Part shown: piece after piece, positions 37,826 through 61,096 of the stretch
How positions within the stretch are numbered: position 1 is the first letter of the stretch
Layout: each line of letters opens with the position of its first letter
Notes under the pieces: generated by a model
Databases searched by the model: none
Told to the model about the DNA's origin: nothing
Seen by the model: only the letters and a program-made list of their open reading frames with translations
Source of the DNA: Terrimonas sp.
GTDB lineage: Bacteria > Bacteroidota > Bacteroidia > Chitinophagales > Chitinophagaceae
NCBI RefSeq assembly: GCF_003075435.1
Contig: NZ_QCZJ01000002.1
Span: 301,972 to 365,971, forward strand
Direction: 5' to 3'
Length of the DNA: 64,000 nucleotides
Program-made: the position numbers and the translations under genes

Positions 37826-37930
37826 AAGTAGCGCAAAATAAACCAGATAAATCTGTTTAGAAAAAACTTTATCAACCATTTTCACAGTGATGAACAGGAA
37901 TATATTTAAGCCTGGCTATTATTACCTGAT

Positions 37931-37959
37931 AAAAGAGCCGCGTTTTTCGCGGCTCTTTT
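37931..37959 (-). terminator. Terminator at the end of the PUL
   Basis: A perfect 12-bp stem (37931-37942 and 37948-37959) around a 5-nt loop has a GC-rich core gagccgcg and A/T flanks on both sides. It lies 30 bp past the stop of the last PUL gene, the second SusD. Confidence 0.9.
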
Positions 37960-37988
37960 ATATACTAATTATTATAATATGAAATTTA

Positions 37989-39581: not shown

Positions 39582-39614
39582 GTAATAAAAATTATATTAT
39601 TAATAATAGGTTTC

Positions 39615-44564: not shown

Positions 44565-46319
44565 TTATTTTTTGTCTACTGCTAATATTACTGTCCCGCG
44601 TGCAGGAACAGTTACTTTTACCCCGTTAGTTGTTGAAGCGGCATTTGCTTTAATGGAAGTATAATTCGACGGTCCGCCTGCTTCAAGTGTTGTGCCCATC
44701 CCGTTTATACTTACTTTCCTGGAAAATTCTCCATTATCATTACCGCCTTCAAGACTATACCAGTAAAACCCGTTTCCCGGTTTAAAGTTTTTCCATTTTA
44801 ATTCAACTGTTACAGATGTGGTACCTGTATTTATAAGTGTTGTATTGATCTGTCCTGAACTGAAAGTGGACGCGTATGCTTTAATATCTGTACTGCCGGA
44901 TACGCTTGCCGGTACTAACCGGTCGCCCAGTAATTTTTGAAAAAAATACATATAGTAAAAAGAGGGGCGGGGTGTCCACTTAGCTATATCCGGTTCACCT
45001 CCATCACTGAATAAACCATGATCATTGCCGTTGCTCCAGCCGTTCAGCAAATCCCATCTTGCGGCCAATCCATATTTGTTTTTTATTGTTTCTCCCAATA
45101 TAATTGTTGCAAATAAACCGCTGATGTTTGATACCTGTTGCTTCGATCCGGTAGCAAACATATTCCACTCTGTTAAGGCAACAGGTTTTATAACACCTCC
45201 GTAAGTTTGTATTTGCGAGGTAATAAAATTTATCATGGTTGCGGGAACTGTAAGTGCAGCATTCAATATATCCTTTGCGTTTGAATTTGTTTCATACGGA
45301 GTGAAATAATTGTGCGCTATGTAATAGTCATTAACTCCGTTTAACTCAGGTATCATGGTTTGATTCCATGTTTTTACGGTATTGGTTTGCCAGCCTTCTG
45401 TAGCCGATTCGTATGTTACAGCGCCAATGTAAATGATCTTGCCAATTTCAGTTGCAGCTTTGCGCATGGAGTCTGCAAATACTTTAAAATGCTGCGCATA
45501 TAATTTACCGGTTAAATATTCCGGCTGGCCGTCTTTATTTTTTGAAACATCAATACGGTAGCCAGCTTCCCAGTCTCCATAATTTTCATTACCTATTTCC
45601 CAGTATTTTGTTCTGCCATTATCATACCTAACCCAATCAGCGGCAAGATGAGCCGCTGCTGCAACAGGATCATCGCTGGTGCCATAGCGGGCATAACCGT
45701 AATTAATAGTGATCACTCCTTCGTTATTACCGCTTTGCTGGCGCATTTGATAATACTGATCAGTGCTGGCGCTCCAGTTGTTATTTATCTTTCCATACCA
45801 GTATCCCGAATTTTGTAAAGTGCCGCCTGCATTCATCAATTGTGAAGGCGCATCTGCCGGAGGTGAATCCTGTGGGCGATTCCAGAAATATATATCACTT
45901 GCGCTGCCGGCCGGCCAACGGATAACATGTGGCCTCAGGTTGGTGATATGATTCATGAATAGCGGCTGATCTACCATCGGCGTCATCCAGGTATTGGCAT
46001 TATGCCCGGTAATGGTTGTTGGTATTTTAGTAATGATGGAGGATGCATCTACTGTTACAATATTAGTGGTAGCCGTATTCGGAACTACCACTTCAGTATA
46101 TTCCGGTGTAGTAAATGTTTTTGCCTGCCAGTCGTTTAAGAAAAAATCGATAGTGTTAGCAACAGCAGGATCTGTAACAGGTCGCACAATTGTTGTATCT
46201 GTTCCTCCTGTTGGTGGGTCTGGATCGACGTTGGTAGTGTTGCTCTTTTTGCAGGAAAGCGTCAGTATAGCTGAGACGCCAGTTGAGAGAATAAGATATT
46301 TTATACTGAATACAGTCAT
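44565..46319 (-). CDS. Clan GH-A glycoside hydrolase lipoprotein (GH51/GH44-like)
   Basis: The 584-residue protein has a lipoprotein signal with Cys23 (LTLSCKKS) and a Thr/Pro/Asp-rich linker. The TIM barrel (about 90-470) has the acid/base Glu245 in YWEIGNENYGDW and the nucleophile Glu384 in ALTEWNMF, the clan GH-A arrangement. A C-terminal beta-sandwich (about 470-584) follows. The NIRWPAG-like segment HVIRWPAGSASD and the overall plan recall GH51 arabinofuranosidases/endoglucanases, but GH44 xyloglucanases share the features I can see. It may provide surface endo-cleavage or arabinose side-chain removal in this PUL. Confidence 0.8.
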   Translation of the reverse strand: MTVFSIKYLILSTGVSAILTLSCKKSNTTNVDPDPPTGGTDTTIVRPVTDPAVANTIDFFLNDWQAKTFTTPEYTEVVVPNTATTNIVTVDASSIITKIPTTITGHNANTWMTPMVDQPLFMNHITNLRPHVIRWPAGSASDIYFWNRPQDSPPADAPSQLMNAGGTLQNSGYWYGKINNNWSASTDQYYQMRQQSGNNEGVITINYGYARYGTSDDPVAAAAHLAADWVRYDNGRTKYWEIGNENYGDWEAGYRIDVSKNKDGQPEYLTGKLYAQHFKVFADSMRKAATEIGKIIYIGAVTYESATEGWQTNTVKTWNQTMIPELNGVNDYYIAHNYFTPYETNSNAKDILNAALTVPATMINFITSQIQTYGGVIKPVALTEWNMFATGSKQQVSNISGLFATIILGETIKNKYGLAARWDLLNGWSNGNDHGLFSDGGEPDIAKWTPRPSFYYMYFFQKLLGDRLVPASVSGSTDIKAYASTFSSGQINTTLINTGTTSVTVELKWKNFKPGNGFYWYSLEGGNDNGEFSRKVSINGMGTTLEAGGPSNYTSIKANAASTTNGVKVTVPARGTVILAVDKK

Positions 46320-46411
46320 TAGCTTAGAAGAAGATTTAAAAATAAGACCTGCATGATAATATTCTTATACAGGTCTTACGAAGTGTGTGAAAAGTTTTAT
46401 CTGGTTTTTCG

Positions 46412-47698
46412 TTATCTTAATCCGATATGATCAATATAAATGGTCCCGCTCCATCCCCTGTCCTGCAGTGTAAATTCATTAATACTTGCCGGCGAAGCAA
46501 TATCAGTTAACGGCACAAGGAATTCAGTCCATTCACCTTCCACAATCTTTACAATTTTTTCTTTGCCTGCTATTAACACGTTTAATTCTTTATCGCCTGT
46601 GCCTGTTGTTCCGAATATGGAGAATACAACATAGGTTTTACCCGATGTTGATGAATTTCCACCACCCATTTGTAATGCGCCCCCCCAGTCACCGCCAAAT
46701 ATTACTTTGATGGATTTCTCACCATCTCTTACATTATCGTTATTGGCTATATCGGAAGATCCGCCTCCCCAGCCTCCCCATTTCTGCCAGCCATTTGCCA
46801 TCTCGTCATCATAAAAAACTATTGCCAATGGCGCTAATGGAGGCAGGTCGCCGATTAATTCTAAAGCTGCTGATGATTCCACCGGCACTTTTGAATAAGG
46901 TACCAGGGTAATATTTCCTTTATTGGCTTCTTCAGGCACTGTAACAACAATTTCTGTAGATGTTTTACTTACAAAATTTGTAACAGGAGCAATTAATCCT
47001 TTAAATAAAATGCCTTCAACAAGATCAAGATTTTCCCCACTAATAGTAATATTATCGCCACGTTCAACAGGGTTAGGAGCGAATTTCGCGAATGTTGGAA
47101 GTGTTAATTCCAGTGCATTTTCTGTTTCAATTTCAAGAGGTTCGGTACCTGAAGTTGATATAATTAACTTGCCCGTTTGGGCAGTAAGAGGAACTGTTAC
47201 TACAAGCTCAGATAATGATTTACTTACAAATTCTGTTACAACAACATCCTTCTCAAAACGTATTTCTGTTATCCAGTTCATGTATTCACCCTTCAGTATT
47301 ATATTCTCTCCGGGTTTTGCTTTTAAAGGCACTTCGCTTATTACTACCGGCACTTCAAAATTGATTGGTGCTTTTGAAGTAATATTACCTTGTGGCGTTT
47401 TTAAAATAACTTTCCCAGATCCTGCCAGCTCTGGTACGGTTAACACAATCTTTTCAAAAGTCTGCTCTTTAAAATCTTTCTGTTCAATAGTAATGTTTGC
47501 CATTTCTATCGCCGTTACCTTATCAAGGTTATTGCCTATAAAAACAATGTCCTCACCATGCTTTATGCCAGACGGTCCGAAACTCAATAATTCTATTATG
47601 TCCGATTTTTTCTCCTCTTTCTTGCAGGATTCAAATATGCCCAATGATACTATTAAGAAAATACCAGTTAATAATCGTTGGATATGTATCAGTTTCAT
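46412..47698 (-). CDS. IPT/TIG-domain surface lipoprotein, candidate glycan-binding protein A
   Basis: The 428-residue protein has a lipoprotein signal with Cys25 (IFESCKKEEKKSD). Three IPT/TIG Ig-like repeats follow (about 37-115, 117-200, 202-290), each with a G-x-x-I-x-x-x-G-x-N/Y-L turn and an IVLTVP-type closing strand. A C-terminal ~135-residue beta-sandwich (DEMANGWQKWGGWGGGSSDIANN, ending in TIYIDHIGLR) looks like a carbohydrate-binding module. The plan matches SGBP-B-type proteins of Bacteroides PULs, which present glycan to SusC/D. Glycan specificity is inferred only from context. Confidence 0.85.
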   Translation of the reverse strand: MKLIHIQRLLTGIFLIVSLGIFESCKKEEKKSDIIELLSFGPSGIKHGEDIVFIGNNLDKVTAIEMANITIEQKDFKEQTFEKIVLTVPELAGSGKVILKTPQGNITSKAPINFEVPVVISEVPLKAKPGENIILKGEYMNWITEIRFEKDVVVTEFVSKSLSELVVTVPLTAQTGKLIISTSGTEPLEIETENALELTLPTFAKFAPNPVERGDNITISGENLDLVEGILFKGLIAPVTNFVSKTSTEIVVTVPEEANKGNITLVPYSKVPVESSAALELIGDLPPLAPLAIVFYDDEMANGWQKWGGWGGGSSDIANNDNVRDGEKSIKVIFGGDWGGALQMGGGNSSTSGKTYVVFSIFGTTGTGDKELNVLIAGKEKIVKIVEGEWTEFLVPLTDIASPASINEFTLQDRGWSGTIYIDHIGLR

Positions 47699-47760: not shown

Positions 47761-48906
47761 TTATTTGAGTACTTTGGGAACTATCCTGAAGTTATCGAAA
47801 GACATATCACAATCAAGGTCTCCCGCACCATGAAATAAAACCCTCGTGTAATAACCATCAGGACTAACGGTTAATGGTGCACCGTAACTTTCTGCAATTA
47901 CTTCAAAAGGAATTACCACTGTTTGCCATTCGCCATGAGTATCATACGGGGGCGCCCATAAGTATTGATTGTTATTGAAGTCACTTGCCAATCCTACATT
48001 CAATTTTATCATGTTATTGTTGTAAGGTTTTTGTGTATTCAGTTCAAATTTCAGATTATAATCTTCTGGTTTCAATATAGCCTCATCAGGAATATTTTTG
48101 CTTATCGGCCCCATTGCACTCGGTGGCCCACCAGCTGCCTCCAGCCAGTTCCATGAACTGATAGCTTTATTTACCCTGAAATAGTTACCATTAATAGCGG
48201 GAGGATCATCGCTACCGGGATTAGAAACCACAAAAGATGAATTCCACCAACCGGTAAAAGGATCACTGCTTATAAAAATATTCCTGTTATCCCTGAACCA
48301 GAAATCCGATTTAGTTTCTCCAAAATTGGTGGTAATAGTAATTGGCCCTGGCTCTGCTCCGGCGGGAACAACAACACTTAACATATCATCGGCAATGCCT
48401 GTTATTTCACCTTCAACACCACCGGTAAAAGTTACTTTAACAGGTGCATAAAAATAATCACCACGTATCACGGCTGTCCCTCCTTCGGGTACATACTCAC
48501 AATTCATGCTCGTAATAAGGGGTTCACTGATTTCTACTGTAAAATCATGTAATAATTCTTTACCGTCTGAAAAAATGATTTTCAGTTTATTAGTGATCTC
48601 AACAGGAATTTGACTGGGAATACTTACCAGTATAGTTGTATTGGTAATATATGTAGGCGTTAAAAGGGCCTTCTGATCATTAAACCAAATTTCTTTAGCA
48701 TTTTGAAGATTTTCTCCAACAATGGCTATCAGGTTGCTCTGGTATGCACCCACAATTAAAGAATCTGCAGATTCTGGCTTGGTAATTCGTATATAACGTA
48801 TACGTGGATCGCCATTATTAGGAAGCGTTTCCTTATTGCAGGCTGTAAATACAGATGCAATCAGAAATACTGCTGTAAAGGCTATTAAGGTTTGTATTGA
48901 TTTCAT
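47761..48906 (-). CDS. Glycan-binding surface lipoprotein B (SGBP-like, IPT/TIG)
   Basis: The 381-residue protein has a lipoprotein signal with Cys23 (VFTACNKETL). Two Ig-like domains (about 33-120 and 125-205: VPEGGTAVIRGDYF, GAEPGPITITTNFG) lead to a C-terminal ligand-binding domain (about 210-381). That domain has WWNSSFVVSNPGSDDPPAINGNYFRV, SSWNWLEAAGG and LDCDMSFDNFRIVP, a family frequently annotated as glycan-binding surface protein next to SusD. Exposed Trp residues fit a sugar platform. It is 22 bp after the first SusD gene and 62 bp before protein A. Confidence 0.88.
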   Translation of the reverse strand: MKSIQTLIAFTAVFLIASVFTACNKETLPNNGDPRIRYIRITKPESADSLIVGAYQSNLIAIVGENLQNAKEIWFNDQKALLTPTYITNTTILVSIPSQIPVEITNKLKIIFSDGKELLHDFTVEISEPLITSMNCEYVPEGGTAVIRGDYFYAPVKVTFTGGVEGEITGIADDMLSVVVPAGAEPGPITITTNFGETKSDFWFRDNRNIFISSDPFTGWWNSSFVVSNPGSDDPPAINGNYFRVNKAISSWNWLEAAGGPPSAMGPISKNIPDEAILKPEDYNLKFELNTQKPYNNNMIKLNVGLASDFNNNQYLWAPPYDTHGEWQTVVIPFEVIAESYGAPLTVSPDGYYTRVLFHGAGDLDCDMSFDNFRIVPKVLK

Positions 48907-48928: not shown

Positions 48929-50602
48929 TTATTGTTGATATTCTGTTGCAGGTTTCAGCAGATTGGGAGCCTGGCTTAATTCTGCATCAGGAATAGGTAG
49001 CCGGAAATTTCCGGAATTGGCAGTAATATTTCTTTCACTAAACCAGGAAGTTTTGGTAAAAGTCCATTGCGTTGGATTAGGAAACTGATCAGGTTCTGTA
49101 AAAAACAGCCCTCTGTCCTGAGCGCTCAAAATGTCGTATGCTTTCTGAGGATTGTAATAATGCAATGAAACCAGGTCGTACCATGCCATACCTTCCATTG
49201 CAAATTCTTTAAATCTTTCCTTTAATATTACATCCATAGTAATCGGGTCTTCAAATGCAGGTAAACCGGCTCTCATATGAACTTTATTAAAATACTCCAG
49301 CGCGGTTACATCTGTTGTTTCAGCATTGTTGCTTAAAACTGCTTCTGCATAAATCAGATACATTTCTGCAAGACGTAACATGTAAGTATCATTTCCGTAG
49401 CGCTGGCTTGCAGAAGCACCGCCCACATCTTCAGCTTTGCCGGTTACATATTTTTTGATAGCTAAAAAATTATTATCTGTTCCTGTAAAAGGGTAAATTA
49501 ATTTTTGCTTTCCACCTGTTATAGTTTGTGTTATTTCAGGATATGAAGCTCCGGGCAGCATAAATGTGGCTTTTAATCGCTGATCAAGTGTTCTTCCTTT
49601 TAATTTTCCATCAGATGTTTCATTAAATCCATCATACATACTGATCATCCACCACGTTGCACCTTTGTCGCCTCCCCACCCGTCGCCGTTCGCAATATCC
49701 GGGCTATAAGCAAGGTAAGCAGGTGTTGAATTTTGTGTGCCCCATGTGGTAGGACCGGAGTATACCCACTGTAGAGAAAACAATGATTCAGCGTTGTTAT
49801 CGTAAGGAAATAAAAACAGGTTAGCATAGTTGCTCAATAAAGCTGCGCCGCTGTTTTTAATTACTCTTTCTGAAAAATACCTTGCACTGTCAAGAAAAAC
49901 CTGGTTTCTTGCACCACCGCTGCTTTCAACACCGGCTCTTGTTAAATAAAATCTTGCCAACATTCCCTCGGCAGACCATCTTGTTAAACGACCCGGACGT
50001 AAAGGTGTTTCCGGAAGATCTTCAGCAATCGCACGCATCTCTTTAGTTAAAAATCTCCAGATGCTTGGAATCGTATTTCTTGTAACACTCGTATCTGCCA
50101 GTAAGGTGAGGTTGTTTTCAATAACAGGCACTTCTCCCCAATTCATTACAAGAAAGCGGTAAGCTAAAGCCCTCATAAATCTCGCTTCAGCAATCGCCAT
50201 CTTTTTAACACTTTCAGATACTTCTGCGCCGGCATAAGTATTAATATTCTGAATGGCGAGATTTGATTGCCCCACCACAATAAAAAAAGAACGCCATGCG
50301 GATCCATTTTCAGGTGTGCTTCCGGTTGTATTGAATAGTACATTACCTCTGTCATTCCATGCAGAGAAAGCTGTACCACCTCTGAAATCGCCAAGATTGT
50401 AAGAGGCCTTATCATTGTAATCAAACCAAACTTTACTGTATAATAGTGCAGTAGCAGCTAATACCTGGTCATCTGTTTTATAAAAATTACCATCGGTAAT
50501 AGCATCGGTAGGTGGTTTGATAAGAAAATCTTTGGAACATGCAGTAAAGAAAACAGTTATCATGCATGCAGCGTATGTATATATTTTAATCGTTTTTTTC
50601 AT
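48929..50602 (-). CDS. RagB/SusD family nutrient uptake lipoprotein (first pair)
   Basis: The 557-residue protein has a lipoprotein signal with Cys22 (VFFTACSKDF). SusD features are the N-terminal TPR segment MRALAYRFLVMNWGEVPVI, the IWRFLTKEMRAIAEDLP helix, the C-terminal MLRLAEMYLIYAEAVL and the ERFKEFAMEGMAWYDLVSLHYY block. The ATG at 50602 is preferred because it opens with MKKTIKIY. An ATG three codons upstream (50611) is also in frame and lies only 1 bp after the SusC stop codon, so coupling with SusC is tight either way. Confidence 0.95.
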   Translation of the reverse strand: MKKTIKIYTYAACMITVFFTACSKDFLIKPPTDAITDGNFYKTDDQVLAATALLYSKVWFDYNDKASYNLGDFRGGTAFSAWNDRGNVLFNTTGSTPENGSAWRSFFIVVGQSNLAIQNINTYAGAEVSESVKKMAIAEARFMRALAYRFLVMNWGEVPVIENNLTLLADTSVTRNTIPSIWRFLTKEMRAIAEDLPETPLRPGRLTRWSAEGMLARFYLTRAGVESSGGARNQVFLDSARYFSERVIKNSGAALLSNYANLFLFPYDNNAESLFSLQWVYSGPTTWGTQNSTPAYLAYSPDIANGDGWGGDKGATWWMISMYDGFNETSDGKLKGRTLDQRLKATFMLPGASYPEITQTITGGKQKLIYPFTGTDNNFLAIKKYVTGKAEDVGGASASQRYGNDTYMLRLAEMYLIYAEAVLSNNAETTDVTALEYFNKVHMRAGLPAFEDPITMDVILKERFKEFAMEGMAWYDLVSLHYYNPQKAYDILSAQDRGLFFTEPDQFPNPTQWTFTKTSWFSERNITANSGNFRLPIPDAELSQAPNLLKPATEYQQ

Positions 50603-50612
50603 GAGTGGCATT

Positions 50613-53600
50613 TTAAAAGTTTACACCTAAGCTTAAAGAAATTACCGGAGTGAGCGGATATCTGCCATAATCAAGCCCTATAGCCTGGTTAGAAGCGCTT
50701 GCATCACGTCCAACATAAGCGCCAACTTCGGGATCAAATCCTTTGTAACGGGTTAATGTGTAAATGTTTTGAGCGCTTATTGAAAATCTTGCCCCTTTTA
50801 TAAATTGCTGCCTGTTTAAAAAATCCTGCGAAAGGTTATATGAAAGTGTTATGTTCTTGATCCTGATATAAGAGCCATCTTCAACCCATTTATTTGTATG
50901 GCGGGTATAGTTGCCATTAGGGCCATAAGAAATGCGCGCAACATCAGTTCGAGGGTTTTCAAGCTGCACTACTCCATTTACCTCAGTAGGCCTTGCGTAT
51001 TCCATTGCTTTGATCAACAGGTTCTGGCTTACATTGGTGTTATTAGGATTAGAATTAACTCTTGCCAGGTAGTTGTATATATCATTTCCGTAAGTACCTG
51101 TTAGAAGAATGCTCAAATCGAAATTTTTATAGGAAAATGTATTAGTAAACCCTGCAAATAATTTAGGCCATGGATTTCCGATGAAAGTTTCATCATACAC
51201 GTCAATTTTACCGTCAGGTGTACCATCAGGACCACTAATGTCTTTGAACTTAACATCACCAACCCAAAGCCCGTTGGTTTGATCAATTGGCAATCTATTA
51301 CCATTATTGTCAACCGGAACCGGGCTTTTTTCAATTTCTTCAATGCTTGTAAATAACCCTTCTTCAATATACCCTCTGAATAACCATGGAGCTTGCCCTA
51401 CAACGGAACGTTGTGTCCAGTCACCCAGCCACCAGGATGTTCTGTTAATAAGTGCTGCTTCAGAATAGAATCTTTCAATGGTACTTTTAAATGCGGAAAT
51501 ATTGAAGTTGGTTTCCCATTTAAAATTCTTATTAGCAATGTTTGTTGTAATAAGCGTAGCGCCCCAACCTTTTGTTTGTATATCGCCCACATTGATATAA
51601 GGTGATTCTACAGAGCCTGTACCATTGGTGCCCATATACCATGGCAAAGGATTCGGCATTAACAGGTTATTTGTATGCTTAATATAATAGTCAAACTCTA
51701 ACTGAATTCTGTTATTGGCAAAGCCAAGGTTTAAACCAAAGTTGTTGGTTTTTGTTTCCTCCCATTTCAAGTCCGGATTTTTGTATCTCCCGGGTAAAAA
51801 TCCTGTGCCTGTTGGTGTAGCACCGGCAATCATTGGTGAGTATATAAATGCGCCACCACCCTGGTTACCTGTAACTCCTGTTTCAAATCTTAATTTAAAC
51901 TCGCTTATGAAAGGTACTTTGAAGAAGGGCTCTTGTGAAAGACGCCATGCAACTGATAATGATGGAAAGTAGCCGATCTTATTATTTTCACCAAAATTTG
52001 CAGAGCCGTCTCGGCGAATGGTAGCATTCAATATATACCGGCTGTCAAAATTATAGCTTAACCTTCCTAAGTATGATTCCATTCCCCATACACCTGAACC
52101 GCCGGAGTTAGTAGCTGTTGTTTCATCGCCTGCATTCAAATCAAGTATGTCATTCGTTAAAAATCCGGTACGGGATGAACTCACATTTTTCCAACGGGAT
52201 TCCTGAGCTTCGTGTGTCAGCATCAGTCCAACGCTATGCTTACCAAATGTTCTGTTATAATCAAGCATCTGGTTCCAGTTCCAGTATGTATTAAAATTGT
52301 TACCATTGGTCAAGGTCGGTCTGTCATTAACAGCCCAACCAATTTTATATTGCGGAATATAGTAGGTGGAGTTTTGGTATCCTACATTGGCATTAAATGA
52401 AGATCTGAAAACTAATCCTTTGGTGATATTTATTCCAAGATTTAGTCCTCCCAGGAATTGCCTTCTAACAAAATTATTAGTGGTCATATTCGCTATCGCA
52501 ATAGGATTTACGGGAGCGAACTGGTTGGCTCCATTGTTTATATCACCACCGCCCCATGTTCCGTCAATATTTTTTACAGGTATCTGAGGCGTTAGCCTGA
52601 TAGCGTTTGAAATAACATTTTCCTGGCTCGTAGTCAGAACTTCATCTGTTTGGTTGAAGTTAAGGTTAGCGCCTAATGTTATCCATTCTCTCGGTTTATT
52701 GTCAAGATTCACCCTGAAAGAATATCTTTTAAAACCGGAACCAATAGCAATACCATCCTGATCAAGATACTCGCCAGACATATAATATGTTGTTTTATCA
52801 TTACCCCCGCTCATGCTGAGAGCGTGTTTACTCATAGGAGCATTATTAAATAATTCTGATTGCCAGTCTGTTCCTTTTCCAAGAAGCGAAGGATCAAGAA
52901 ATTCCTGCGGAACTTCACCACCTACTATAGCACGCATTTCTTTTACCATCTGCGCGTACTGTTGCAGGTTCATTACCTCGAGATGTTTAGGTGGTGTTTG
53001 TACGCTGTACAAAAAATTATATTCAAGTTTAGCCTGGCCTGATTTGCCTCTTTTGGTTGTAATGAGTATTACACCATTGGTGGCGCGTGATCCATATATT
53101 GCTGTAGCAGAAGGTCCTTGTAAAAGTTGGATATCCTGTATATCGGAAGGGTTAAGGCCAGCTATAGGATTCGTTGAGCTTTGTGCGCCAAAAGAAACAC
53201 TTTCGCCCATTACCTGTACCCCGTCAATAACATACAGAGGTTCAGTTGTGCCATTAACAGTACTAACACCTCTTATATTAACAGAAATACCTCCGCCCGG
53301 CTGACCACTATTTTGAGTAATGTATACCCCGGCGGCTCGTCCCTGAATAGCTTGTTCAATAGTAGTGTTGATGGTTTTATCTATATCTTTAGCAGAAACC
53401 GTTGTTTGTGCTGATGTTAAATTAGCTCGTTTGGCAGTGCCATATCCTATAACAACAACTTCATCAAGTTTTTGAGCCAACTGCTCCATTCTTACTTCGA
53501 TCAAGGAAGAAGAACCGATATTAATCTCCCGCGTAATCATACCAACAGAGCTGATGACCAGGTTTTTTGCATTAGAAGTAACCTGAAGCGTAAATACCCC

Positions 53601-53801
53601 AAGCTGATCGGTTGCAGTTACAGCTTTGGTTTCTTTTACTTCTACAGAAGCCCCTTGTACCGGATTGCCCTGGTTGTCTTTAACTGTGCCGGTAATTTTT
53701 CGGGTACCTCCTTGCTGGGCATGTACATTTGTAATAAGCAGTAGCGCTAAAAGAGAACATAACAGAGCTCTCACTTTAGCCGCCGTTTTGTTTTTGTTCA
53801 T
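50613..53801 (-). CDS. SusC/RagA family TonB-dependent transporter (first pair)
   Basis: The 1062-residue protein has a signal peptide (ALLCSLLALLLITNVHAQ), a CarboxypepD_reg-like domain (about 35-112: ITGTVKDNQGNPVQGASVEVK), the boundary motif DEVVVIGYGTAKRANL, a plug (YVIDGVQV, GPSATAIYGSRATNGVILITTKRG) and a large barrel ending VISLSLGVNF. It is the outer-membrane transporter for the PUL target oligosaccharide. It lies 33 bp after the GH31 gene and touches the SusD gene. The two SusC proteins of this locus differ clearly in sequence and length, so they are not a recent duplication. Confidence 0.96.
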   Translation of the reverse strand: MNKNKTAAKVRALLCSLLALLLITNVHAQQGGTRKITGTVKDNQGNPVQGASVEVKETKAVTATDQLGVFTLQVTSNAKNLVISSVGMITREINIGSSSLIEVRMEQLAQKLDEVVVIGYGTAKRANLTSAQTTVSAKDIDKTINTTIEQAIQGRAAGVYITQNSGQPGGGISVNIRGVSTVNGTTEPLYVIDGVQVMGESVSFGAQSSTNPIAGLNPSDIQDIQLLQGPSATAIYGSRATNGVILITTKRGKSGQAKLEYNFLYSVQTPPKHLEVMNLQQYAQMVKEMRAIVGGEVPQEFLDPSLLGKGTDWQSELFNNAPMSKHALSMSGGNDKTTYYMSGEYLDQDGIAIGSGFKRYSFRVNLDNKPREWITLGANLNFNQTDEVLTTSQENVISNAIRLTPQIPVKNIDGTWGGGDINNGANQFAPVNPIAIANMTTNNFVRRQFLGGLNLGINITKGLVFRSSFNANVGYQNSTYYIPQYKIGWAVNDRPTLTNGNNFNTYWNWNQMLDYNRTFGKHSVGLMLTHEAQESRWKNVSSSRTGFLTNDILDLNAGDETTATNSGGSGVWGMESYLGRLSYNFDSRYILNATIRRDGSANFGENNKIGYFPSLSVAWRLSQEPFFKVPFISEFKLRFETGVTGNQGGGAFIYSPMIAGATPTGTGFLPGRYKNPDLKWEETKTNNFGLNLGFANNRIQLEFDYYIKHTNNLLMPNPLPWYMGTNGTGSVESPYINVGDIQTKGWGATLITTNIANKNFKWETNFNISAFKSTIERFYSEAALINRTSWWLGDWTQRSVVGQAPWLFRGYIEEGLFTSIEEIEKSPVPVDNNGNRLPIDQTNGLWVGDVKFKDISGPDGTPDGKIDVYDETFIGNPWPKLFAGFTNTFSYKNFDLSILLTGTYGNDIYNYLARVNSNPNNTNVSQNLLIKAMEYARPTEVNGVVQLENPRTDVARISYGPNGNYTRHTNKWVEDGSYIRIKNITLSYNLSQDFLNRQQFIKGARFSISAQNIYTLTRYKGFDPEVGAYVGRDASASNQAIGLDYGRYPLTPVISLSLGVNF

Positions 53802-53834: not shown

Positions 53835-56711
53835 TTAATATTTAATGTTCATTTTTATCGTTTGCTCGTTACCGTTATATGATATGGCAGTATCGGCCTG
53901 GGCAGAAAAATCAATGTTCGTTTTCTTGTCTTTATCTATCCATACTATTCTGAAAATTTTATTTTTAGATATGCCTTTAAAGTCTCCGCTGCATTTGCCG
54001 ATGGTAAGGGTTTGACTCGCTTCTTTGTAGCTAATGGGAATATTGCAAAACGCGCCTTTTTCATAATTATAATTCACGCCTTCATCTTCATATAAATTAA
54101 AGCTGGCATCGCGCCCTGTATAAATATATAAGGTAATTTTATCTGTATTGGTGTCGTTGGTATGCTGAATATCCGGTCCAACAGGAATGATTGATCCTTC
54201 TTTTACGAACAGCGGCATTCTTTCATACGGCGCCGCAGCATCAATATACTGACCGCCTTCGTTGTACTTGCCCGTATACATATCGTACCACCCTTGACCT
54301 GCCGGTAAGTACAATTTTCTTTCTACCGCATGTGGTTTATATACCGGGTTTACAAGTATAGATGAACCGAACATATATTGATCACCAATATTCTTTACAT
54401 TAGGATCTGATGCAAAATCCATGATCAGCCCACGCATTAATGTATAGTTGTTGTGGTAAACACTGCCGGTTGCTGAATATATATAAGGCATCAACCTGTA
54501 ACGAAGCTGGTTGTAATACAACATGCTTTTATAAGCCGGATGATTTTCCGGCGCTATATTATATATCTCTCTATAAGGATATTGACCATGCGATCTGAAT
54601 AAGGGACAGAATGCGCCGAACTGGTACCATCTTGTATTTAATTCTCTCCATTCTTCAAGCGCTTCTCCCTGGGGGTTGGGTTTATCATATTTATCTTCTA
54701 CAAAAAATCCCCCTATGTCCGTTGTCCAGTAGGGGAGACCGGATAAAGAAAAATTAATACCCGCCGGTATCTGTCTTTCCAGTTCATCAAATCTTGCTGC
54801 TATATCTCCGCTCCATGTTGCTGCGCCATAGCGCTGCATACCTGCATAAGCTGAACGAGTAAGAATGAAAACACGTTGATCGTTATTGGTTTGTCTTTGC
54901 CCTTCATAAATGCCTTTAGCGTTTTGAAGTGCATAACCATTAAAGTATTGTGTAGCAGGACCGAGTGCCGTTGGGTTCATTAATGTCTTACGTTTTTCGA
55001 TAGTGGCATTAGAGAGAATATCCGGTTCCGTTGCATCTAACCACCATGCATCAACGCCTTTGCTGAATAGTTTTGAATTGAGTAAATTCCAAAATCCTTT
55101 TCTCGCATCCGCATTGTAAGCATCATAAAATGTTGACACGTATCCTTTACCTATCCAGTCGCGGGTTTCATCTTTTATATTTTGTTTGTAGAGCCAGTTG
55201 TTTTTATCAAATAATTTATAAGTCTCAATGCCTTCGTAAAACTTAGGCCAAACCGATATCATAAAATGAGCATTATACTCATTATGCAATTTTTTAATCA
55301 TTCCATCCGGATCAGGAAACCTGGTTGAATCAAATTCCTGGCTGCCCCAGGCATCTTCCTTCCAGTAACTCCAGTCGAGCACGATATTGTCCAGACCAAT
55401 TTTTCTTTTCCTGAATTCAGCCACCGTGCTTTCAATTTCTGCCTGGGTTTTATAACGTTCGCGGCTTTGCCAAAAACCCAAGGCCCATTTGGGGAGAATA
55501 GGAGCTTTACCTGTTAATTCACGGTAACCGCTGATGATATCATCAGCGGTTTGGCCGTAAACAAAATAATAATCTATTGCCTCTGCTGCCTCAGAATAAA
55601 TAGTCATCTTATTATTTAAAGAAACAGGGTTAGGACTAAGCCATTTTAAAGAAACAAAAGCCTGGATTGACTCTGGTATCCATTCTATTTTGATAGGATA
55701 TTTTTTGTTTTTTTCAAGTTGAACGGCAAAAAATGAAGGACCTGGATTCCAGCCTTCACGCCATTTGTCCAGCAATAATTTTCCATCAAGCCAGTATTTG
55801 ATATAGCCTGATGCCGAAAGATAGAATTTATGCTCGCCGGTGGTGTCAGCACTTATATATCCTTCCCATTTTACTTTTCCTTTATCCATCGGAAAACCGG
55901 CAGGAATATTTTTTAATGATGAGAGAAAAGCATAATCAATTTTATCTTCCTGCTGTTTTACAAATATTTTGCTGCTGTCTGTTCTATCACTGTATGTGGC
56001 AGTTAAACCTTTTGATATGCCATCGGATCCTGTAAGCGATAAAGAAGATATGTCTTGTTTCTTACGGTTATCGCCAAATGAAGTAATGGAGTAATTATCC
56101 CACAATAATCCATATTTACGGGACGAAACAAGAAAGGGTACGGATACAGTGGAATTATATTGGGTCAGATCAACATCCTTATCTTTATAATTGATCATAC
56201 CGGTTTGCGGTTGCCCCAAGCCATAAAAAGCCTCTTCTGTTGGCGATTCAAATACCTGGCTCACCTGGTACAACGGTTTTTCGTCAACTTTAACCGGGAT
56301 AATTGTTTTTCCGCCACCTGCTTTTTCCTGCAGAATAATATTTCCACTGCTGTCTTTAAAAATTATTTCACCGGTAGCAAAGGAAACTGTTGCTGATATA
56401 CTATTGGTTTTTAAAATTGCTTCAGTGGCATTATGTTGTTCTGTCCAGGCAACTGCAGGCAGTTTTGTGTGATCCCGCATAAGACTTTCGGTTGTTGGAA
56501 ATTCTCCTGCGCCTGTAGCTGTTATACGAATAATTTTTGGAGTGATGGCTGTTAATCTTATTAAAGATGCACCACCCGGAGCTGCCTGTTTAAGCTTAAT
56601 GATAATGCCGTCATCTAATGTAATTATTTCCTGCCGGGAAGTGCATGCAAAAAGGAAGGGATAAACACATGCTGTTATAATATAAATACTTTTCTTTATA
56701 CAAGGCAACAT
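53835..56711 (-). CDS. GH31 alpha-xylosidase with inserted PA14 domain, lipoprotein
   Basis: The 958-residue protein has a lipoprotein signal with Cys23 (FLFACTSRQ). The N-terminal beta-sandwich (about 40-240) is followed by a PA14 insert (about 270-370: KWEGYISADTTGEHKFYLS, KYWLDGKLLLDKW), the GH31 barrel (about 400-730) and C-terminal beta domains. The nucleophile is Asp559 in WWLDATEPD and the acid/base is Asp636 in ATWSGD. PA14 in this position is a feature of characterised alpha-xylosidases that remove the non-reducing-end xylose from xyloglucan oligosaccharides. Alpha-glucosidase activity is a less likely alternative. It is the first gene of the nine-gene PUL transcript. Confidence 0.93.
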   Translation of the reverse strand: MLPCIKKSIYIITACVYPFLFACTSRQEIITLDDGIIIKLKQAAPGGASLIRLTAITPKIIRITATGAGEFPTTESLMRDHTKLPAVAWTEQHNATEAILKTNSISATVSFATGEIIFKDSSGNIILQEKAGGGKTIIPVKVDEKPLYQVSQVFESPTEEAFYGLGQPQTGMINYKDKDVDLTQYNSTVSVPFLVSSRKYGLLWDNYSITSFGDNRKKQDISSLSLTGSDGISKGLTATYSDRTDSSKIFVKQQEDKIDYAFLSSLKNIPAGFPMDKGKVKWEGYISADTTGEHKFYLSASGYIKYWLDGKLLLDKWREGWNPGPSFFAVQLEKNKKYPIKIEWIPESIQAFVSLKWLSPNPVSLNNKMTIYSEAAEAIDYYFVYGQTADDIISGYRELTGKAPILPKWALGFWQSRERYKTQAEIESTVAEFRKRKIGLDNIVLDWSYWKEDAWGSQEFDSTRFPDPDGMIKKLHNEYNAHFMISVWPKFYEGIETYKLFDKNNWLYKQNIKDETRDWIGKGYVSTFYDAYNADARKGFWNLLNSKLFSKGVDAWWLDATEPDILSNATIEKRKTLMNPTALGPATQYFNGYALQNAKGIYEGQRQTNNDQRVFILTRSAYAGMQRYGAATWSGDIAARFDELERQIPAGINFSLSGLPYWTTDIGGFFVEDKYDKPNPQGEALEEWRELNTRWYQFGAFCPLFRSHGQYPYREIYNIAPENHPAYKSMLYYNQLRYRLMPYIYSATGSVYHNNYTLMRGLIMDFASDPNVKNIGDQYMFGSSILVNPVYKPHAVERKLYLPAGQGWYDMYTGKYNEGGQYIDAAAPYERMPLFVKEGSIIPVGPDIQHTNDTNTDKITLYIYTGRDASFNLYEDEGVNYNYEKGAFCNIPISYKEASQTLTIGKCSGDFKGISKNKIFRIVWIDKDKKTNIDFSAQADTAISYNGNEQTIKMNIKY

Positions 56712-56782
56712 TCAGCAATCGTTTCGGTTAAAAGAAAATTGATACTCCAAAACTAATAACCCGATTAAAAAAGCAGGGTAGC

Positions 56783-56870
56783 CAAATGTTCAAAATAAGG
56801 CGTTCAAATGTTCCGCCTAAGGGGTGCATTTGTTTATTTATGGGGCATCAAATGTTAACCATATTTCATT
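56783..56870. promoter_or_regulatory. Array of four CAAATGTT-type motifs at exact 22-bp spacing, candidate HTCS operator
   Basis: CAAATGTT occurs at 56783-56790, 56805-56812 and 56849-56856, and CATTTGTT (two mismatches) at 56827-56834. Starts are 22, 22 and 22 bp apart, two helical turns. The first two copies also share a TAAGGsG block 13 bp after the motif start, and the third has a shifted TATGGGG. The array sits in the 245-bp gap between the GH31 and HTCS start codons. Same-face direct repeats are what an AraC-type DNA-binding dimer or oligomer would need. Confidence 0.65.
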
Positions 56871-56956: not shown

Positions 56957-59900
56957 ATGTTCAAAAAGTCTGTTCAACTTATTGCGTGTTTGCTTTTTTA
57001 CTGCTTGTGGGGATATTCACAAAAAAATGAATATCAGTTCATGCACCTTGATGTGCGGCAGGGGCTTTCGCATAACCAGGTAAATACCATTTTTAAAGAT
57101 GATAAGGGGTTTATGTGGTTTGGCACCATGTCGGGGTTGAACAGGTTTGATGGCTACGACTTTAAAGTATTCAGGAATGACCTGCTCGACACCACTACGC
57201 TAAGCGATAATTATATCAGCAATATTTTTGAGCTGCCAGACCGTAAGCTGTGGATAGTAACAAGAAATGGTAATAATATATATGATCCCAAAAAAGAATC
57301 TTTTGCACGTAATGATCAGCAATACCTTGCCTCTCTTTCCCTGCCTGCCGGAAACGTAACATTTATTTTAAAAGATAAAAAAGGCGATTTCTGGTTTGTA
57401 TACCAGAATCTTATTGGAGTATATAAATATTCTCCGTCAACCAGGAGATCTGTAAAAATCCTTAATCTGTCTGAAGCCGCAACAGGAATATCAGCCAATG
57501 ATGTTACTATGTTAGCACCGGACCTGGATAATAATATATGGGTTATTCACCGCAATGGAATTATTGAAAAAATTGATAACGCTTCGGGTAAAGTAAGTTT
57601 CCGGTCAAACGAATTGCAAACAAGAAATGCAGGTAAAAATGAAAACTACTTCCTCTTTATTGATAAAGATAACGAGCTCTGGATAACAGTTCCGCTGTCT
57701 ATAACACATGGCGGCATTTACTATTTTAAACCTTCTTCCAATACGCTTTATTATTTTTCTAAAGAAACTGCCGGTATACAGCTAAACTCGAATATTGTTT
57801 CCGGCATTGTACAAGGTAATGACGGTAGAATATGGATCGGTACTGACCATGGTGGCGTAAATATTATTGAGAAGAAAAACATGCAGGTACAATACCTGAT
57901 GAACGATGCAGAAGATCATACGAGCATATCTCAAAACAGTATATGGAGTATTTATAAAGATAATGCCGGGGTAATATGGTTAGGCACTTTTAAGCAGGGT
58001 ATTAATTATTATAGCAGTCAATTAGCTTTATTCAGTTTATTCAAACACAAAATATCTGATCCCGGCAGTCTTCCTTTTGAGGATGTGAATAAGTTTGTTG
58101 AAGATAAAGAAGGCAACCTGTGGATAGGAACAAATGGCGGAGGACTTCTGCATTATGACAGGCGATCAGGAAAATTTAAAAGTTTCCGGCACGATCCTAA
58201 AAACATAAACAGCATCAGCAGTGATGTTGTGGTTAGTTTATGCATTGATCATGAAAATAAAGTATGGATAGGAACATATTATGGAGGATTGAATTGTTAC
58301 GACGGTAAAAAGTTTATACATTTTCGGCATAATGCGGCAGATACAAGCAGTATATCCGACGACAGCATCTGGGAAATATTTGAAGATGCGGATAAAAAGC
58401 TTTGGATTGGAACATTAACCAGTGGAATGAACCTGTTCGACAGAACTACGCAAAACTTCCGGCATTTTGATGTAGAAAACCGTTCGCTTCATTCAAATTA
58501 TATTTCAGTAATTATTGAAGATAAAGAAAAAAATCTCTGGCTGGCAACATCCAATGGTATTGATGTGATGGATAAAAAATCAGGCGCGTTTCGCTATTAT
58601 GGCCACGATGATAAAGATCGTTTCTCTTTAAGCAATAACAATGTAATGTCCATCTTGCAGGATAGTCGTGGCAGGATATGGGCCGGCACCCGCGAGGGAT
58701 TGAATGTATTAGATACTGAAAAGAAAAAATTTACTGTATTCAGAAAAGAAAATGGTCTGCCTGATAATACCATACTTACAATATTGGAAGATGATGCTCA
58801 TAATTTATGGATAGGCACTCCCAATGGATTAAGCAATGGTATTGTAAGTACCGATAAAGAAGGGAATATCAGTATGCGGTTCATTAATTATGATGAATCG
58901 AACGGTTTGCAGGGCAGGGAATTCAATGATAAGGCAGCTTATAAATTAAGATCAGGTGAGCTTGCTTTTGGCGGACCTTATGGGTTTAACATATTCCTTC
59001 CGGCAAAATTTCCTTCCGCAAATGAGCTTCCTGAAGTAGTAATTACCGCTTTAAATATATTCAACCAGTCCGTAGAACCTTTTAAAAAAATAGACGGACA
59101 TGAAATACTTTCTGAAGCTATTACAGAAACAAAAGAAATTACACTAAAGTATAATCAAAATGTATTCTCCATTTCTTTTTCAGCGCTTGGCATAGGTATG
59201 TCGCCCAAGAACAAGTTCAGGTATATGCTTGAGGGCTTTAATAAAGAATGGCTTACTACCGATGGACGGCAACGAATGATAACATACACTAATATTGACC
59301 CCGGTAAATATACTTTAAAGATAAAACCTGACAGTGGCGACCCTGCGAACATTGCTGAAGTAACAACACTACAAATAAATGTACTGCCGCCATTCTGGAG
59401 AACAATACCGGCATTTCTGCTATATGTTGTTGCAGCAATCGGGATATTACTTTTAGCCAGGCGGCTTACCATTCAGAGAGCCAATATGCGTTTCAGGATG
59501 GCACAACAACAAAAAGAAGCGGAACGTATTCATGAACTGGATATGATGAAGCTGAAATTCTTTACCAATGTCAGTCATGAATTCAGAACACCTATTTCAC
59601 TCATTATTACACCGGTAGAAAAGCTGATGAAAGACCCCGGCGAAGATGTTCACAAAAAACAATACCAGCTTATACACCGCAATGCGAAAAGGTTACTCGG
59701 ATTGGTTAATCAATTGCTCGATTTTCGTAAGCTTGAAATGAAAGAGTTGAGATTGCAACCTTCAATAGGGGATATCATTGGTTTTCTTAAAGAGCTTACA
59801 TTCTCATTTACCGATCTCGCTGAAAAGAAGAATATCAATTTTACTTTTTGCTCTGCTGCAGAATCAGTTGAAATGCCCTTTGACGCAGACAAGATAGAAC

Positions 59901-61096
59901 GTATAATGTTTAATCTCCTGTCAAATGCATTTAAGTTTACAAGAGAGAATGGTAAAATCAGTGTGCATGTAAATGTAGCAGGTGGTGCAGAAGCTCAAGA
60001 AATGCTTGAAATAAAAGTTTCGGATAGCGGTATTGGTATACCAAAAGAAACCATGGAAAAAATATTTGAACGCTTTTTTCAGCATGATGTTCCGGGCAAT
60101 ATGCTAAACCAGGGAAGCGGTATCGGTTTAGCTATCTCGAAAGAATTTGCAAAATTACACGGTGGTGATGTTAAAGTTGATAGTGTAGTAGGGGAGGGGA
60201 CTACATTTACGGTGTTACTGCCTTTAATCACTTCAGTTACGCATTCATCTTATAAAAACAATATAGAGGTAGAAGAAACCCTGGTGCAGGCGGTTGAAGA
60301 AGAAAACGGGCACACCACAAGCCGGAAGAAAAGCATATTAATTATTGAAGATAATGATGATATACGGTTTTATATACAGGATAACCTCCGGAATAATTAT
60401 ACAGTATACCAGGCAGTAAATGGAAAAGAGGGTTGGAAAAAGGCGCAGGAACTGCAACCTGATATGATCATAAGCGATGTAATGATGCCGGAAATGGATG
60501 GTATTGAATTATTGAAAAAAATAAAAACAGACCCTAGTACGTCTCATATACCTGTTATATTATTAACCGCCCGTGTAACTGATGATCAGAAATTGGAAGG
60601 ATTAAATACCGGTGCGGTAGATTATATAACCAAACCTTTCAGTTTTGAAATGTTACAATCCCGCATAAAAAGCTTGTTGGCGCAGCAGGAGTCTATGCGG
60701 AATTTATTTCAGAAGCAAATAGAAATCAACCCTAAAGAAATCAGTGCTACGCCTGTTGATGAAAGATTTATTGAAAAAGCCGTTGAAATAGTAGAGCAAA
60801 ATATAGCTGAAACTGAATTTTCAGTTGAAGATTTAAGCAAAGCTTTATTCATGAGCCGCGTTGCGCTGTACAAAAAATTACTCTCGCTTACCGGGAAAGC
60901 GCCTTTGGATTTTATACGTATCATACGAATGAAACGTGCAGCGCAGCTAATGAAAAAAACACAGATGAGCGTATCGGAAATTGCGTATGAAGTAGGCTTT
61001 AATAATCCCAAGTATTTCACCAAATCCTTTAAAAAAGAATTCGGGAAATTACCCTCCGAATATATTACGGAAAACAGGAAGACTGCTAAAAGTTAG
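56957..61096 (+). CDS. Hybrid two-component system regulator (HTCS) of the PUL
   Basis: The 1379-residue protein is a one-protein phosphorelay. Order: signal peptide; about 14 two-bladed-propeller Reg_prop repeats (about 25-715, many IWIGT and LWIGT motifs); a Y_Y_Y domain (about 725-805); a membrane helix (about 815-835); HisKA with phospho-His near 873 in NVSHEFRTP; HATPase (NLLSNAFKFT near 985, SGIGIPKE, GSGIGLAIS); a receiver domain (IIEDNDD near 1126, phospho-Asp near 1173 in ISDVMMPEMDG, TKPFSF); and an AraC helix-turn-helix (about 1275-1374: AYEVGFNNPKYFTKSFKKEFGKLPSEY). The periplasmic propeller binds a sugar cue and the AraC part turns on the divergent PUL. The ATG at 56957 was preferred over a TTG 12 bp upstream. 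Confidence 0.96.
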   Translation: MFKKSVQLIACLLFYCLWGYSQKNEYQFMHLDVRQGLSHNQVNTIFKDDKGFMWFGTMSGLNRFDGYDFKVFRNDLLDTTTLSDNYISNIFELPDRKLWIVTRNGNNIYDPKKESFARNDQQYLASLSLPAGNVTFILKDKKGDFWFVYQNLIGVYKYSPSTRRSVKILNLSEAATGISANDVTMLAPDLDNNIWVIHRNGIIEKIDNASGKVSFRSNELQTRNAGKNENYFLFIDKDNELWITVPLSITHGGIYYFKPSSNTLYYFSKETAGIQLNSNIVSGIVQGNDGRIWIGTDHGGVNIIEKKNMQVQYLMNDAEDHTSISQNSIWSIYKDNAGVIWLGTFKQGINYYSSQLALFSLFKHKISDPGSLPFEDVNKFVEDKEGNLWIGTNGGGLLHYDRRSGKFKSFRHDPKNINSISSDVVVSLCIDHENKVWIGTYYGGLNCYDGKKFIHFRHNAADTSSISDDSIWEIFEDADKKLWIGTLTSGMNLFDRTTQNFRHFDVENRSLHSNYISVIIEDKEKNLWLATSNGIDVMDKKSGAFRYYGHDDKDRFSLSNNNVMSILQDSRGRIWAGTREGLNVLDTEKKKFTVFRKENGLPDNTILTILEDDAHNLWIGTPNGLSNGIVSTDKEGNISMRFINYDESNGLQGREFNDKAAYKLRSGELAFGGPYGFNIFLPAKFPSANELPEVVITALNIFNQSVEPFKKIDGHEILSEAITETKEITLKYNQNVFSISFSALGIGMSPKNKFRYMLEGFNKEWLTTDGRQRMITYTNIDPGKYTLKIKPDSGDPANIAEVTTLQINVLPPFWRTIPAFLLYVVAAIGILLLARRLTIQRANMRFRMAQQQKEAERIHELDMMKLKFFTNVSHEFRTPISLIITPVEKLMKDPGEDVHKKQYQLIHRNAKRLLGLVNQLLDFRKLEMKELRLQPSIGDIIGFLKELTFSFTDLAEKKNINFTFCSAAESVEMPFDADKIERIMFNLLSNAFKFTRENGKISVHVNVAGGAEAQEMLEIKVSDSGIGIPKETMEKIFERFFQHDVPGNMLNQGSGIGLAISKEFAKLHGGDVKVDSVVGEGTTFTVLLPLITSVTHSSYKNNIEVEETLVQAVEEENGHTTSRKKSILIIEDNDDIRFYIQDNLRNNYTVYQAVNGKEGWKKAQELQPDMIISDVMMPEMDGIELLKKIKTDPSTSHIPVILLTARVTDDQKLEGLNTGAVDYITKPFSFEMLQSRIKSLLAQQESMRNLFQKQIEINPKEISATPVDERFIEKAVEIVEQNIAETEFSVEDLSKALFMSRVALYKKLLSLTGKAPLDFIRIIRMKRAAQLMKKTQMSVSEIAYEVGFNNPKYFTKSFKKEFGKLPSEYITENRKTAKS

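What the first reader, a model, noticed from the sequence alone, without database searches (positions are those of the whole stretch)
56783..56870. Phased 22-bp motif array between the HTCS gene and the PUL
Seen: CAAATGTT at 56783, 56805 and 56849, and CATTTGTT at 56827, i.e. four copies at exact 22-bp intervals, with a second shared block TAAGGsG inside the first two units. Known: HTCS proteins carry an AraC-type DNA-binding domain and act on their adjacent PUL; such domains often bind direct repeats on one face of the helix. Inference: this is the HTCS operator. No copy was found in the 99-bp gap before the second SusC, suggesting one controlled promoter for all nine genes.
Basis: partly seen in the sequence, partly recalled or inferred. 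Interest (0 to 1): 0.72.

Follow-up and report, generated by a model that had tools for sequence, protein, structure and literature searches.

The report
Operator array for xyloglucan gene cluster
A row of four matching DNA sites, spaced two helix turns apart, is very probably where a membrane sugar sensor lands to switch on a plant-fibre (xyloglucan) digestion gene cluster; similar sites sit in front of related clusters in distant relatives, even where the sensor gene lies elsewhere in the genome.

Summary
The array is real: CAWWTGTT at 56783, 56805, 56827, 56849, exactly 22 bp apart, found once in the 6.18-Mb draft genome. It faces the PUL: a TAnnTTTG (-7) box on the PUL strand lies 18 bp from unit 1. 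Comparative evidence is strong. All 10 same-genus orthologs of the first PUL gene (GH31) carry the array, including four whose HTCS is on another contig and has none upstream. So do 7 of 8 more distant HTCS loci fetched and 23 of 46 assessable named Bacteroidota loci, 13 of 14 where GH31 adjoins the HTCS. HTCSs with 'SRV'-type recognition helix: 16 of 16 positive; others 7 of 30. Exact -7 boxes cluster at 17-19 bp (15 of 18). Best reading: operator of the xyloglucan HTCS, bound by activated dimers where a -33 box would lie. Direct-repeat HTCS operators (mean 21 bp) were predicted in 2013, so this is a new, well-resolved member of a known kind. Binding is untested.

The parts
56774..56795 (+). 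operator unit 1, CAGGGTAGCCAAATGTT core, nearest the PUL promoter
56796..56817 (+). operator unit 2, TAAGGCGTTCAAATGTT core
56818..56839 (+). operator unit 3, TAAGGGGTGCATTTGTT core (the ATTTG form is also unit 3 in G010 and G009)
56840..56861 (+). operator unit 4, ATGGGGCATCAAATGTTAA core, farthest from the PUL promoter
56748..56755 (-). TAGTTTTG, match to the Bacteroidota -7 box TAnnTTTG, 18 bp from unit 1; inferred PUL promoter
   Evidence: consensus from PMC7366714 (passage)
56960..61096 (+). HTCS sensor-regulator (Reg_prop, Y_Y_Y, HisKA, HATPase_c, Response_reg, HTH_18), inferred to bind the array; ATG at 56960 chosen here, the mechanical ORF starts at TTG 56945
53835..56711 (-). GH31 with PA14 domain (probable alpha-xylosidase by context), first PUL gene
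50613..53801 (-). SusC-like TonB-dependent transporter
48929..50611 (-). SusD-like protein
47761..48906 (-). surface glycan-binding protein with Pfam SGBP_B_XBD xyloglucan-binding domain
   Evidence: E 1.2e-34
46412..47698 (-). TIG-domain protein
44565..46319 (-). conserved protein, no Pfam or NCBIfam family at E 0.001, no PDB sequence relative at E 0.1
42837..44561 (-). GH9
39615..42737 (-). second SusC-like transporter
37989..39581 (-). second SusD-like protein
46320..46411 (-). gap with terminator-like hairpin AAGACCTG...CAGGTCTT-ATTTTT inside the cluster
37886..37988 (-). gap with GC-rich terminator-like hairpin AAAAGAGCCGCG...CGCGGCTCTTTT after the second SusD, likely end of the cluster

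Best explanation
The array is the operator of the xyloglucan HTCS. Each 22-bp unit (about AGGGGTAtyAAATGTTaa) is one site for one AraC-type DNA-binding domain: its two helix-turn-helix motifs would read the G-block and the ATGTT block, about one helix turn apart on one face. An activated HTCS homodimer would cover two adjacent units and the four-unit array two dimers side by side; in the ten four-unit arrays the steps 1-2 and 3-4 are nearly fixed at 22 bp while the middle step varies from 20 to 22. Unit 1 starts 18 bp from the -7 box of the divergent PUL promoter, about where a -33 element would lie, so bound HTCS would recruit RNA polymerase to a promoter that lacks a -33 box. Shown by sequence: unit, phasing, orientation, distance to the -7 box, conservation with the PUL, association with the recognition helix. 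Inferred: binding, phosphorylation control, dimer pairing, activation, and xyloglucan oligosaccharides as the signal.
For: A PWM from 12 units of three loci finds a tandem pair in each of the 14 other loci; 500 shuffles reach the score 0 times in 11 of 14 and once in 3; the mean pair score peaks at spacing 22 (24.4) and 21 (18.1) and is 10.8 or less at every other spacing from 12 to 40. The array precedes GH31 in 10 of 10 same-genus orthologs; in G003, G006, G002 and G007 the HTCS lies on another contig and the fetched DNA upstream of it has no scoring pair within 2.5 kb. In tandem loci the array lies between the HTCS 3' end and the PUL. Named loci: 23 of 46 assessable positive; 13 of 14 with adjacent GH31; 1 of 13 with HTCS under 35% identity and SusC only. 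Recognition helix [SNT]RV: 16 of 16 positive; others 7 of 30. Exact -7 boxes within -5 to 75 bp of unit 1 in 40 loci: 18 found, at 17 (1), 18 (13), 19 (1), 39 (1), 40 (2) bp. Prior work: 16 HTCS motifs predicted as direct repeats, mean 21 bp (PMC3878776, passages); ChIP-seq shows that intact HTCSs bind DNA at their PULs, one with its top peak at the 3' region of the HTCS gene (PMC3404733 section 9); HTCS fragments shift promoters of susCD homologs (PMC11253607, passages).
Against: No binding, footprint or expression data for this system. Only 7 of 17 SusC-adjacent HTCSs of 40% identity or more are positive; of the 10 negatives 8 are Mucilaginibacter, and none has [SNT]RV. One distant HTCS (L202) is positive, and some positives are weak (L142, L144, L149 score about 11). 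G001 has the array but no HTCS ortholog was found (510-contig assembly). G017:C32 has an HTCS with neither PUL genes nor array in the stretches fetched. In G020 a repeat on the other strand scores higher (20.1 against 18.6). Ten of 40 loci have no -7 box at 17-19 bp even with one mismatch; three of these have an exact one at 39-40 bp. [quoted passage not shown] Related genomes are not independent observations.
Confidence: 0.88

Rival explanations
1. The array is an operator of the PUL promoter, but the binding protein is another AraC-type regulator or a global regulator rather than this HTCS.
For: No protein-DNA data; G001 has the array without a detected HTCS ortholog.
Against: HTCS and array co-occur: of 12 genus genomes, 9 have both the HTCS ortholog (in G011 a fragment at a contig end) and the GH31 ortholog with array, 2 (G004, G005) have neither ortholog, G001 has GH31 and array only. 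Array presence follows the HTCS recognition helix. One site in the genome argues against a global regulator.
Confidence: 0.07
2. The array regulates the HTCS gene itself (autoregulation), and its place beside the PUL is incidental to the divergent layout.
For: In the window and close relatives the array lies between the two divergent genes.
Against: Where the HTCS is unlinked (4 genomes) the array is with the PUL and not upstream of the HTCS; in tandem loci it lies downstream of the HTCS; the -7 box at fixed distance faces the PUL. In Segatella copri the xyloglucan-linked HTCS gene is not upregulated (PMC11784079, passages). Secondary autoregulation in the divergent loci is not excluded.
Confidence: 0.03
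3. Chance or a decayed simple repeat without function.
For: The window-only statistic is moderate: 1 of 2000 shuffles, and other places score as high.
Against: Unit, phase and orientation recur in 40 loci, and the promoter distance in most of them.
Confidence: 0.01

Closest known systems
Predicted HTCS operators of Bacteroides thetaiotaomicron (PMC3878776, 2013; 12 of 33 passages shown)
   Same: Direct repeats upstream of the PUL, same helix face, mean distance 21 bp, read as dimers of AraC-type domains; also found by comparative genomics.
   Different: There two sites per motif; here up to four units, other lineages, a recurrent -7 distance, and unlinked HTCS cases. The motif logos (figures) could not be compared; the passages shown name no xyloglucan HTCS.
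Class II activation by AraC (araI1-I2 at the E. coli araBAD promoter; recalled, from no call)
   Same: Direct repeats two turns apart, proximal site abutting or overlapping the upstream promoter element.
   Different: Regulator is a membrane-bound HTCS; promoter is of the Bacteroidota -7 type; up to four units.
HTCS-GH2-GH31 cluster and distant xyloglucan PUL of Segatella copri DSM18205 (PMC11784079; passages)
   Same: HTCS beside a GH31 predicted alpha-xylosidase; core xyloglucan PUL elsewhere, so the HTCS would have to act at a distance.
   Different: No operator is described in the passages seen; enzymes differ (GH5_4, GH2). A Prevotella sp. locus here (L182) has HTCS-array-GH31.

Membership tests
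HTCS direct-repeat operator (PMC3878776 type) | direct repeat of conserved sites at about 21 bp start to start | tested here: met
   22-22-22 in the window; steps of 20-23 in the 40 loci, mostly 21-22
HTCS direct-repeat operator (PMC3878776 type) | upstream of PUL genes whose HTCS is adjacent | tested here: met
   also with unlinked HTCS in 4 genomes
HTCS direct-repeat operator (PMC3878776 type) | conserved upstream of orthologous genes | tested here: met
   10 of 10 genus GH31 orthologs
HTCS direct-repeat operator (PMC3878776 type) | physical binding by the HTCS | not testable with these tools
   needs gel shift, footprint or ChIP
HTCS protein | propeller sensor, Y_Y_Y, HisKA, HATPase, receiver and AraC-type HTH in one chain | tested here: met
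   PDB sequence relatives 4a2l, 3v9f, 12aw
HTCS protein | receiver S/CHIP motif of the inhibitory receiver-HTH interface (PMC11253607) | tested here: met
   SHIP at residue 1195; the D and K partners of the motif were not mapped
Primary-sigma (ABfr) Bacteroidota promoter | -7 box TAnnTTTG | tested here: met
   TAGTTTTG 56748-56755, the only exact match on the PUL strand in the ten gaps checked
Primary-sigma (ABfr) Bacteroidota promoter | -33 box TTTG | tested here: not met
   no TTTG in the 18 bp upstream of the -7 box; the nearest upstream TTTG is inside unit 1, 27 bp from the box
Xyloglucan PUL | xyloglucan-binding SGBP, GH31, GH9, SusC/D | tested here: met
   SGBP_B_XBD E 1.2e-34, GH31 with PA14, GH9, SusD
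Xyloglucan PUL | alpha-xylosidase specificity of GH31 | tested here: inconclusive
   best NCBIfam equivalog is alpha-xylosidase, but 231.7 bits is below its cut-off of 606

The most novel reading that the evidence does not exclude
The array marks an old, phylum-wide pairing of one HTCS subfamily (first recognition helix SRVxLYKK-like, second N[ND]PKYF-like) with one operator-promoter module: two to four units, pairs of units at a nearly fixed 22 bp, a looser step between pairs, and a -7 box at 18 bp with no -33 box. A membrane-tethered regulator would bind as two dimers and take the place of the -33 element, and the pairing survives the HTCS gene moving elsewhere in the genome.
Probability: 0.5. 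Interest if true: 0.55.

Novelty: new member of a known kind. Interest (0 to 1): 0.45.

Why it matters
HTCSs control many polysaccharide utilisation loci of Bacteroidota. In the papers seen here their operators are computer predictions from gut Bacteroides, with ChIP-seq peaks and gel shifts on promoter fragments. A resolved unit, a spacing rule, a promoter distance and a matching recognition helix make a testable code: one can look for the PUL that an unlinked HTCS controls, build fixed-distance reporters, and ask whether the HTCS stands in for the -33 element.

Tried and rejected
Rejected: autoregulation as the main role (array follows the PUL); global regulator (single genomic site); simple tandem repeat; window-only significance as sufficient proof.

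Mistakes and dead ends. One search showed only the low-coordinate side of each locus; genome-search loci are not turned, so the views of L006, L008, L011, L014 and L016 there showed the wrong end and were not used. The patterns had the G-block to ATGTT distance one base too long: still caught true arrays in G002, G006, G009 and G010 and two unrelated places (G011:C391, G005:C45); all 19 hits were dropped; one search is the corrected search. In one search three loci (L099-L101) were cut at the wrong place and redone.

Rows not counted: 34 of 80 named loci had no GH31 or SusC match within 1.5 kb of the HTCS on the right strand and were not assessable. Among these, L131 and L141 show a pair (17.8 and 23.8) about 120 and 520 bp before a more distant GH31 or SusC; they are not counted as positives. 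L130 is the same contig as G017:C32 by its length and is not assessable. Where a locus had two candidate genes (L154) the better was used. L135's second helix was not covered by the match and counts as 'other' in the second-helix table. G001 has no HTCS ortholog but is counted among the 10 GH31 loci.

Literature: direct-repeat HTCS operators are in print (PMC3878776). Searches aimed at HTCS operators or a xyloglucan HTCS (one search returned nothing) listed no title or abstract start that describes a xyloglucan HTCS operator; most listed papers were not opened and only open-licence papers are held. Passages only were seen of PMC3878776, PMC12125979, PMC11253607, PMC7366714, PMC10766802 and PMC11784079; passages (53) and section 9 (54) of PMC3404733.

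Not done: no structure prediction, no covariance model, no tree. The recognition-helix association is not corrected for relatedness and its rule was chosen.

Full report
OBSERVATION. Three phased copies occur only here in the 6.18-Mb draft genome, with none for the reversed control pattern; the two-unit pattern with G-block is perfect only here. Within the window alone the evidence is moderate (1 of 2000 shuffles; several other places score as high or higher).

THE UNIT. Aligning the array with G010 and G009 shows the register: a G-block, five variable bases, then A[AT][AT]TGTT, repeated every 22 bp. The G at unit positions 4, 5 and 15 is invariant in the 12 units (2.25 bits each). The two blocks lie about one helix turn apart, as expected for the two HTH motifs of an AraC-type domain (inference).

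WHERE IT SITS. The array lies in the 248-bp gap between GH31 (minus strand, start codon ending at 56711) and the HTCS (plus strand, ATG 56960). On the GH31 strand there is one exact TAnnTTTG in this gap, TAGTTTTG at 56748-56755, and none in the nine other intergenic gaps of the cluster. TAnnTTTG is the -7 consensus of the primary sigma factor of Bacteroidota (PMC7366714, passage). The 18 bp between it and unit 1 keep their length across loci but not their sequence.

THE CLUSTER. Pfam finds a xyloglucan-binding SGBP domain, GH31 with PA14, GH9, SusD and TIG domains; the second SusC passes its NCBIfam cut-off. This points to xyloglucan. The HTCS has the full domain set.

ORTHOLOGS IN THE GENUS. 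Of 12 genus genomes, 10 have a GH31 ortholog at 68% identity or more and all 10 carry the array in front of it. Nine have four units and G007 has two. HTCS and GH31 are adjacent in G000, G010, G009, G008 and, with an HTCS fragment at a contig end, G011. In G003, G006, G002 and G007 the HTCS is on another contig; in the roughly 19 kb fetched on either side of it there is no ortholog of a PUL gene, only weak partial SusC-like matches (27-29% identity) in G003 and G006. The fetched DNA upstream of those four HTCS genes shows no scoring pair within 2.5 kb, only scattered weaker ones farther off. In G001 no HTCS ortholog was found. The array therefore goes with the PUL and, in those four genomes, would have to be recognised in trans.

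WIDER. Eight HTCS loci from the same family at 44-51% identity were fetched. Seven have a PUL beside the HTCS and all seven have phased units; there HTCS and PUL run in tandem and the array lies between the HTCS 3' end and the first PUL gene (GH31 or SusC), turned the same way relative to the PUL. The eighth (G017:C32) has neither. In 46 a GH31 or SusC lies within 1.5 kb on the right strand; 23 of these are positive (at most 2 of 200 shuffles): 13 of 14 with GH31, and with SusC 7 of 17 at HTCS identity of 40% or more, 2 of 2 at 35-40%, 1 of 13 under 35%. Positives come from Chitinophaga, Flavihumibacter, Pedobacter, Parapedobacter, Sphingobacterium, Mucilaginibacter, Chryseosolibacter, Prevotella and several MAGs of Chitinophagaceae, Cytophagales and Bacteroidales.

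STATISTICS. With the PWM trained on G000, G010 and G009 only, the 14 other loci score above nearly all shuffles (0 of 500 reach it in 11, 1 of 500 in 3). The spacing profile peaks sharply at 21-22 bp. The opposite strand scores lower in 13 of 14 (at most 8.8) and higher in G020 (20.1 against 18.6). Of the 14, six were chosen by GH31 homology and one (G008) by HTCS homology; the seven family loci were chosen by HTCS homology and an adjacent PUL, after the scan had shown pairs there.

PROMOTER DISTANCE. Over 40 operator loci (17 unnamed, 23 named) the 18 exact -7 boxes found within -5 to 75 bp of unit 1 lie at 17 (1), 18 (13), 19 (1), 39 (1) and 40 (2) bp; 39-40 is 18 plus one more step. Of the 22 other loci, 15 have a one-mismatch box at 17-19 bp and 7 do not; one-mismatch boxes are weak evidence. 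Ten loci have four units: step 1-2 is 22 bp in 10 of 10, step 3-4 in 9 of 10 (21 once), step 2-3 is 22 in 4, 21 in 5 and 20 in 1. A simple reading is two dimers, each on two units.

PROTEIN SIDE. In the first recognition helix, [SNT]RV goes with the operator (16 of 16; others 7 of 30); PK in the second helix also (18 of 24; others 5 of 22). The rule was picked after inspecting and the sequences are related, so the Fisher P of 5e-7 is only indicative. The receiver has the SHIP motif that PMC11253607 (passages) ties to inhibition of DNA binding until phosphorylation, which fits an inducible activator.

MECHANISM. Shown by sequence: unit, phase, strand, distance, conservation, helix association. 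Inferred: oligosaccharides bind the propeller sensor; the HTCS phosphorylates itself; HTH domains are released and dimers bind adjacent units on one face; unit 1, near where a -33 box would be, brings in RNA polymerase at the -7 box; GH31 and the genes behind it are transcribed. ChIP-seq shows that intact membrane HTCSs can bind DNA at their PULs, one with its strongest peak at the 3' region of its own gene (PMC3404733 section 9), close to where tandem loci here carry the array. Against over-reading the -33 point: PMC7366714 (passage) notes that no -33 motif could be identified in Flavobacterium johnsoniae.

ONE PROMOTER FOR NINE GENES? No other array and no other exact -7 box was found in the intergenic gaps of the cluster, and a GC-rich terminator-like hairpin follows the second SusD. 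But a terminator-like hairpin sits in the 92-bp gap at 46320-46411, and the second SusC/SusD pair was not seen in the G008, G009 and G010 stretches fetched (a 24% SusD-like match lies on the other strand in G010). The claim stays open.

NOVELTY. Direct-repeat HTCS operators of mean 21 bp were predicted for 16 of 36 B. thetaiotaomicron HTCSs (PMC3878776, passages). This is a new member, with more units, a promoter-distance rule and trans cases.

Noticed in passing
61104-62092 (-): RES/Xre-type toxin-antitoxin pair next to the HTCS 3' end, above the NCBIfam cut-offs.
   Followed up: no
44565-46319 (-): Protein matched over nearly its whole length at 56-82% identity in seven other genus genomes, and in part in an eighth (G001), with no Pfam or NCBIfam family at E 0.001 (one Pfam match at E 0.042, below cut-off) and no PDB sequence relative at E 0.1; a possible uncharacterised enzyme of these clusters.
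   Followed up: partly
46320-46411 (-): Terminator- or attenuator-like hairpin between two genes of the cluster; could separate expression of the import genes from that of the enzymes behind it.
   Followed up: no
37989-42737 (-): Second SusC/SusD pair not seen in the stretches fetched for the orthologous clusters of G008, G009, G010; may be a later addition.
   Followed up: partly
L175 (Pedobacter steynii), about 12025: Variant pair 22 bp apart, GAAATCTTAAA and GAAATTCTTAAA in place of AAATGTTAA, beside an HTCS whose first recognition helix differs (MSTPILYKK): possible co-variation of site and helix.
   Followed up: no
L136, L137, L149, L150, L160, L178 (Mucilaginibacter): HTCSs at 46-48% identity with recognition helix VSRYTLYKK and a weak or no copy of this operator (3-58 of 200 shuffles reach the score in five, 2 of 200 in L149): a group with probably shifted specificity.
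   Followed up: no
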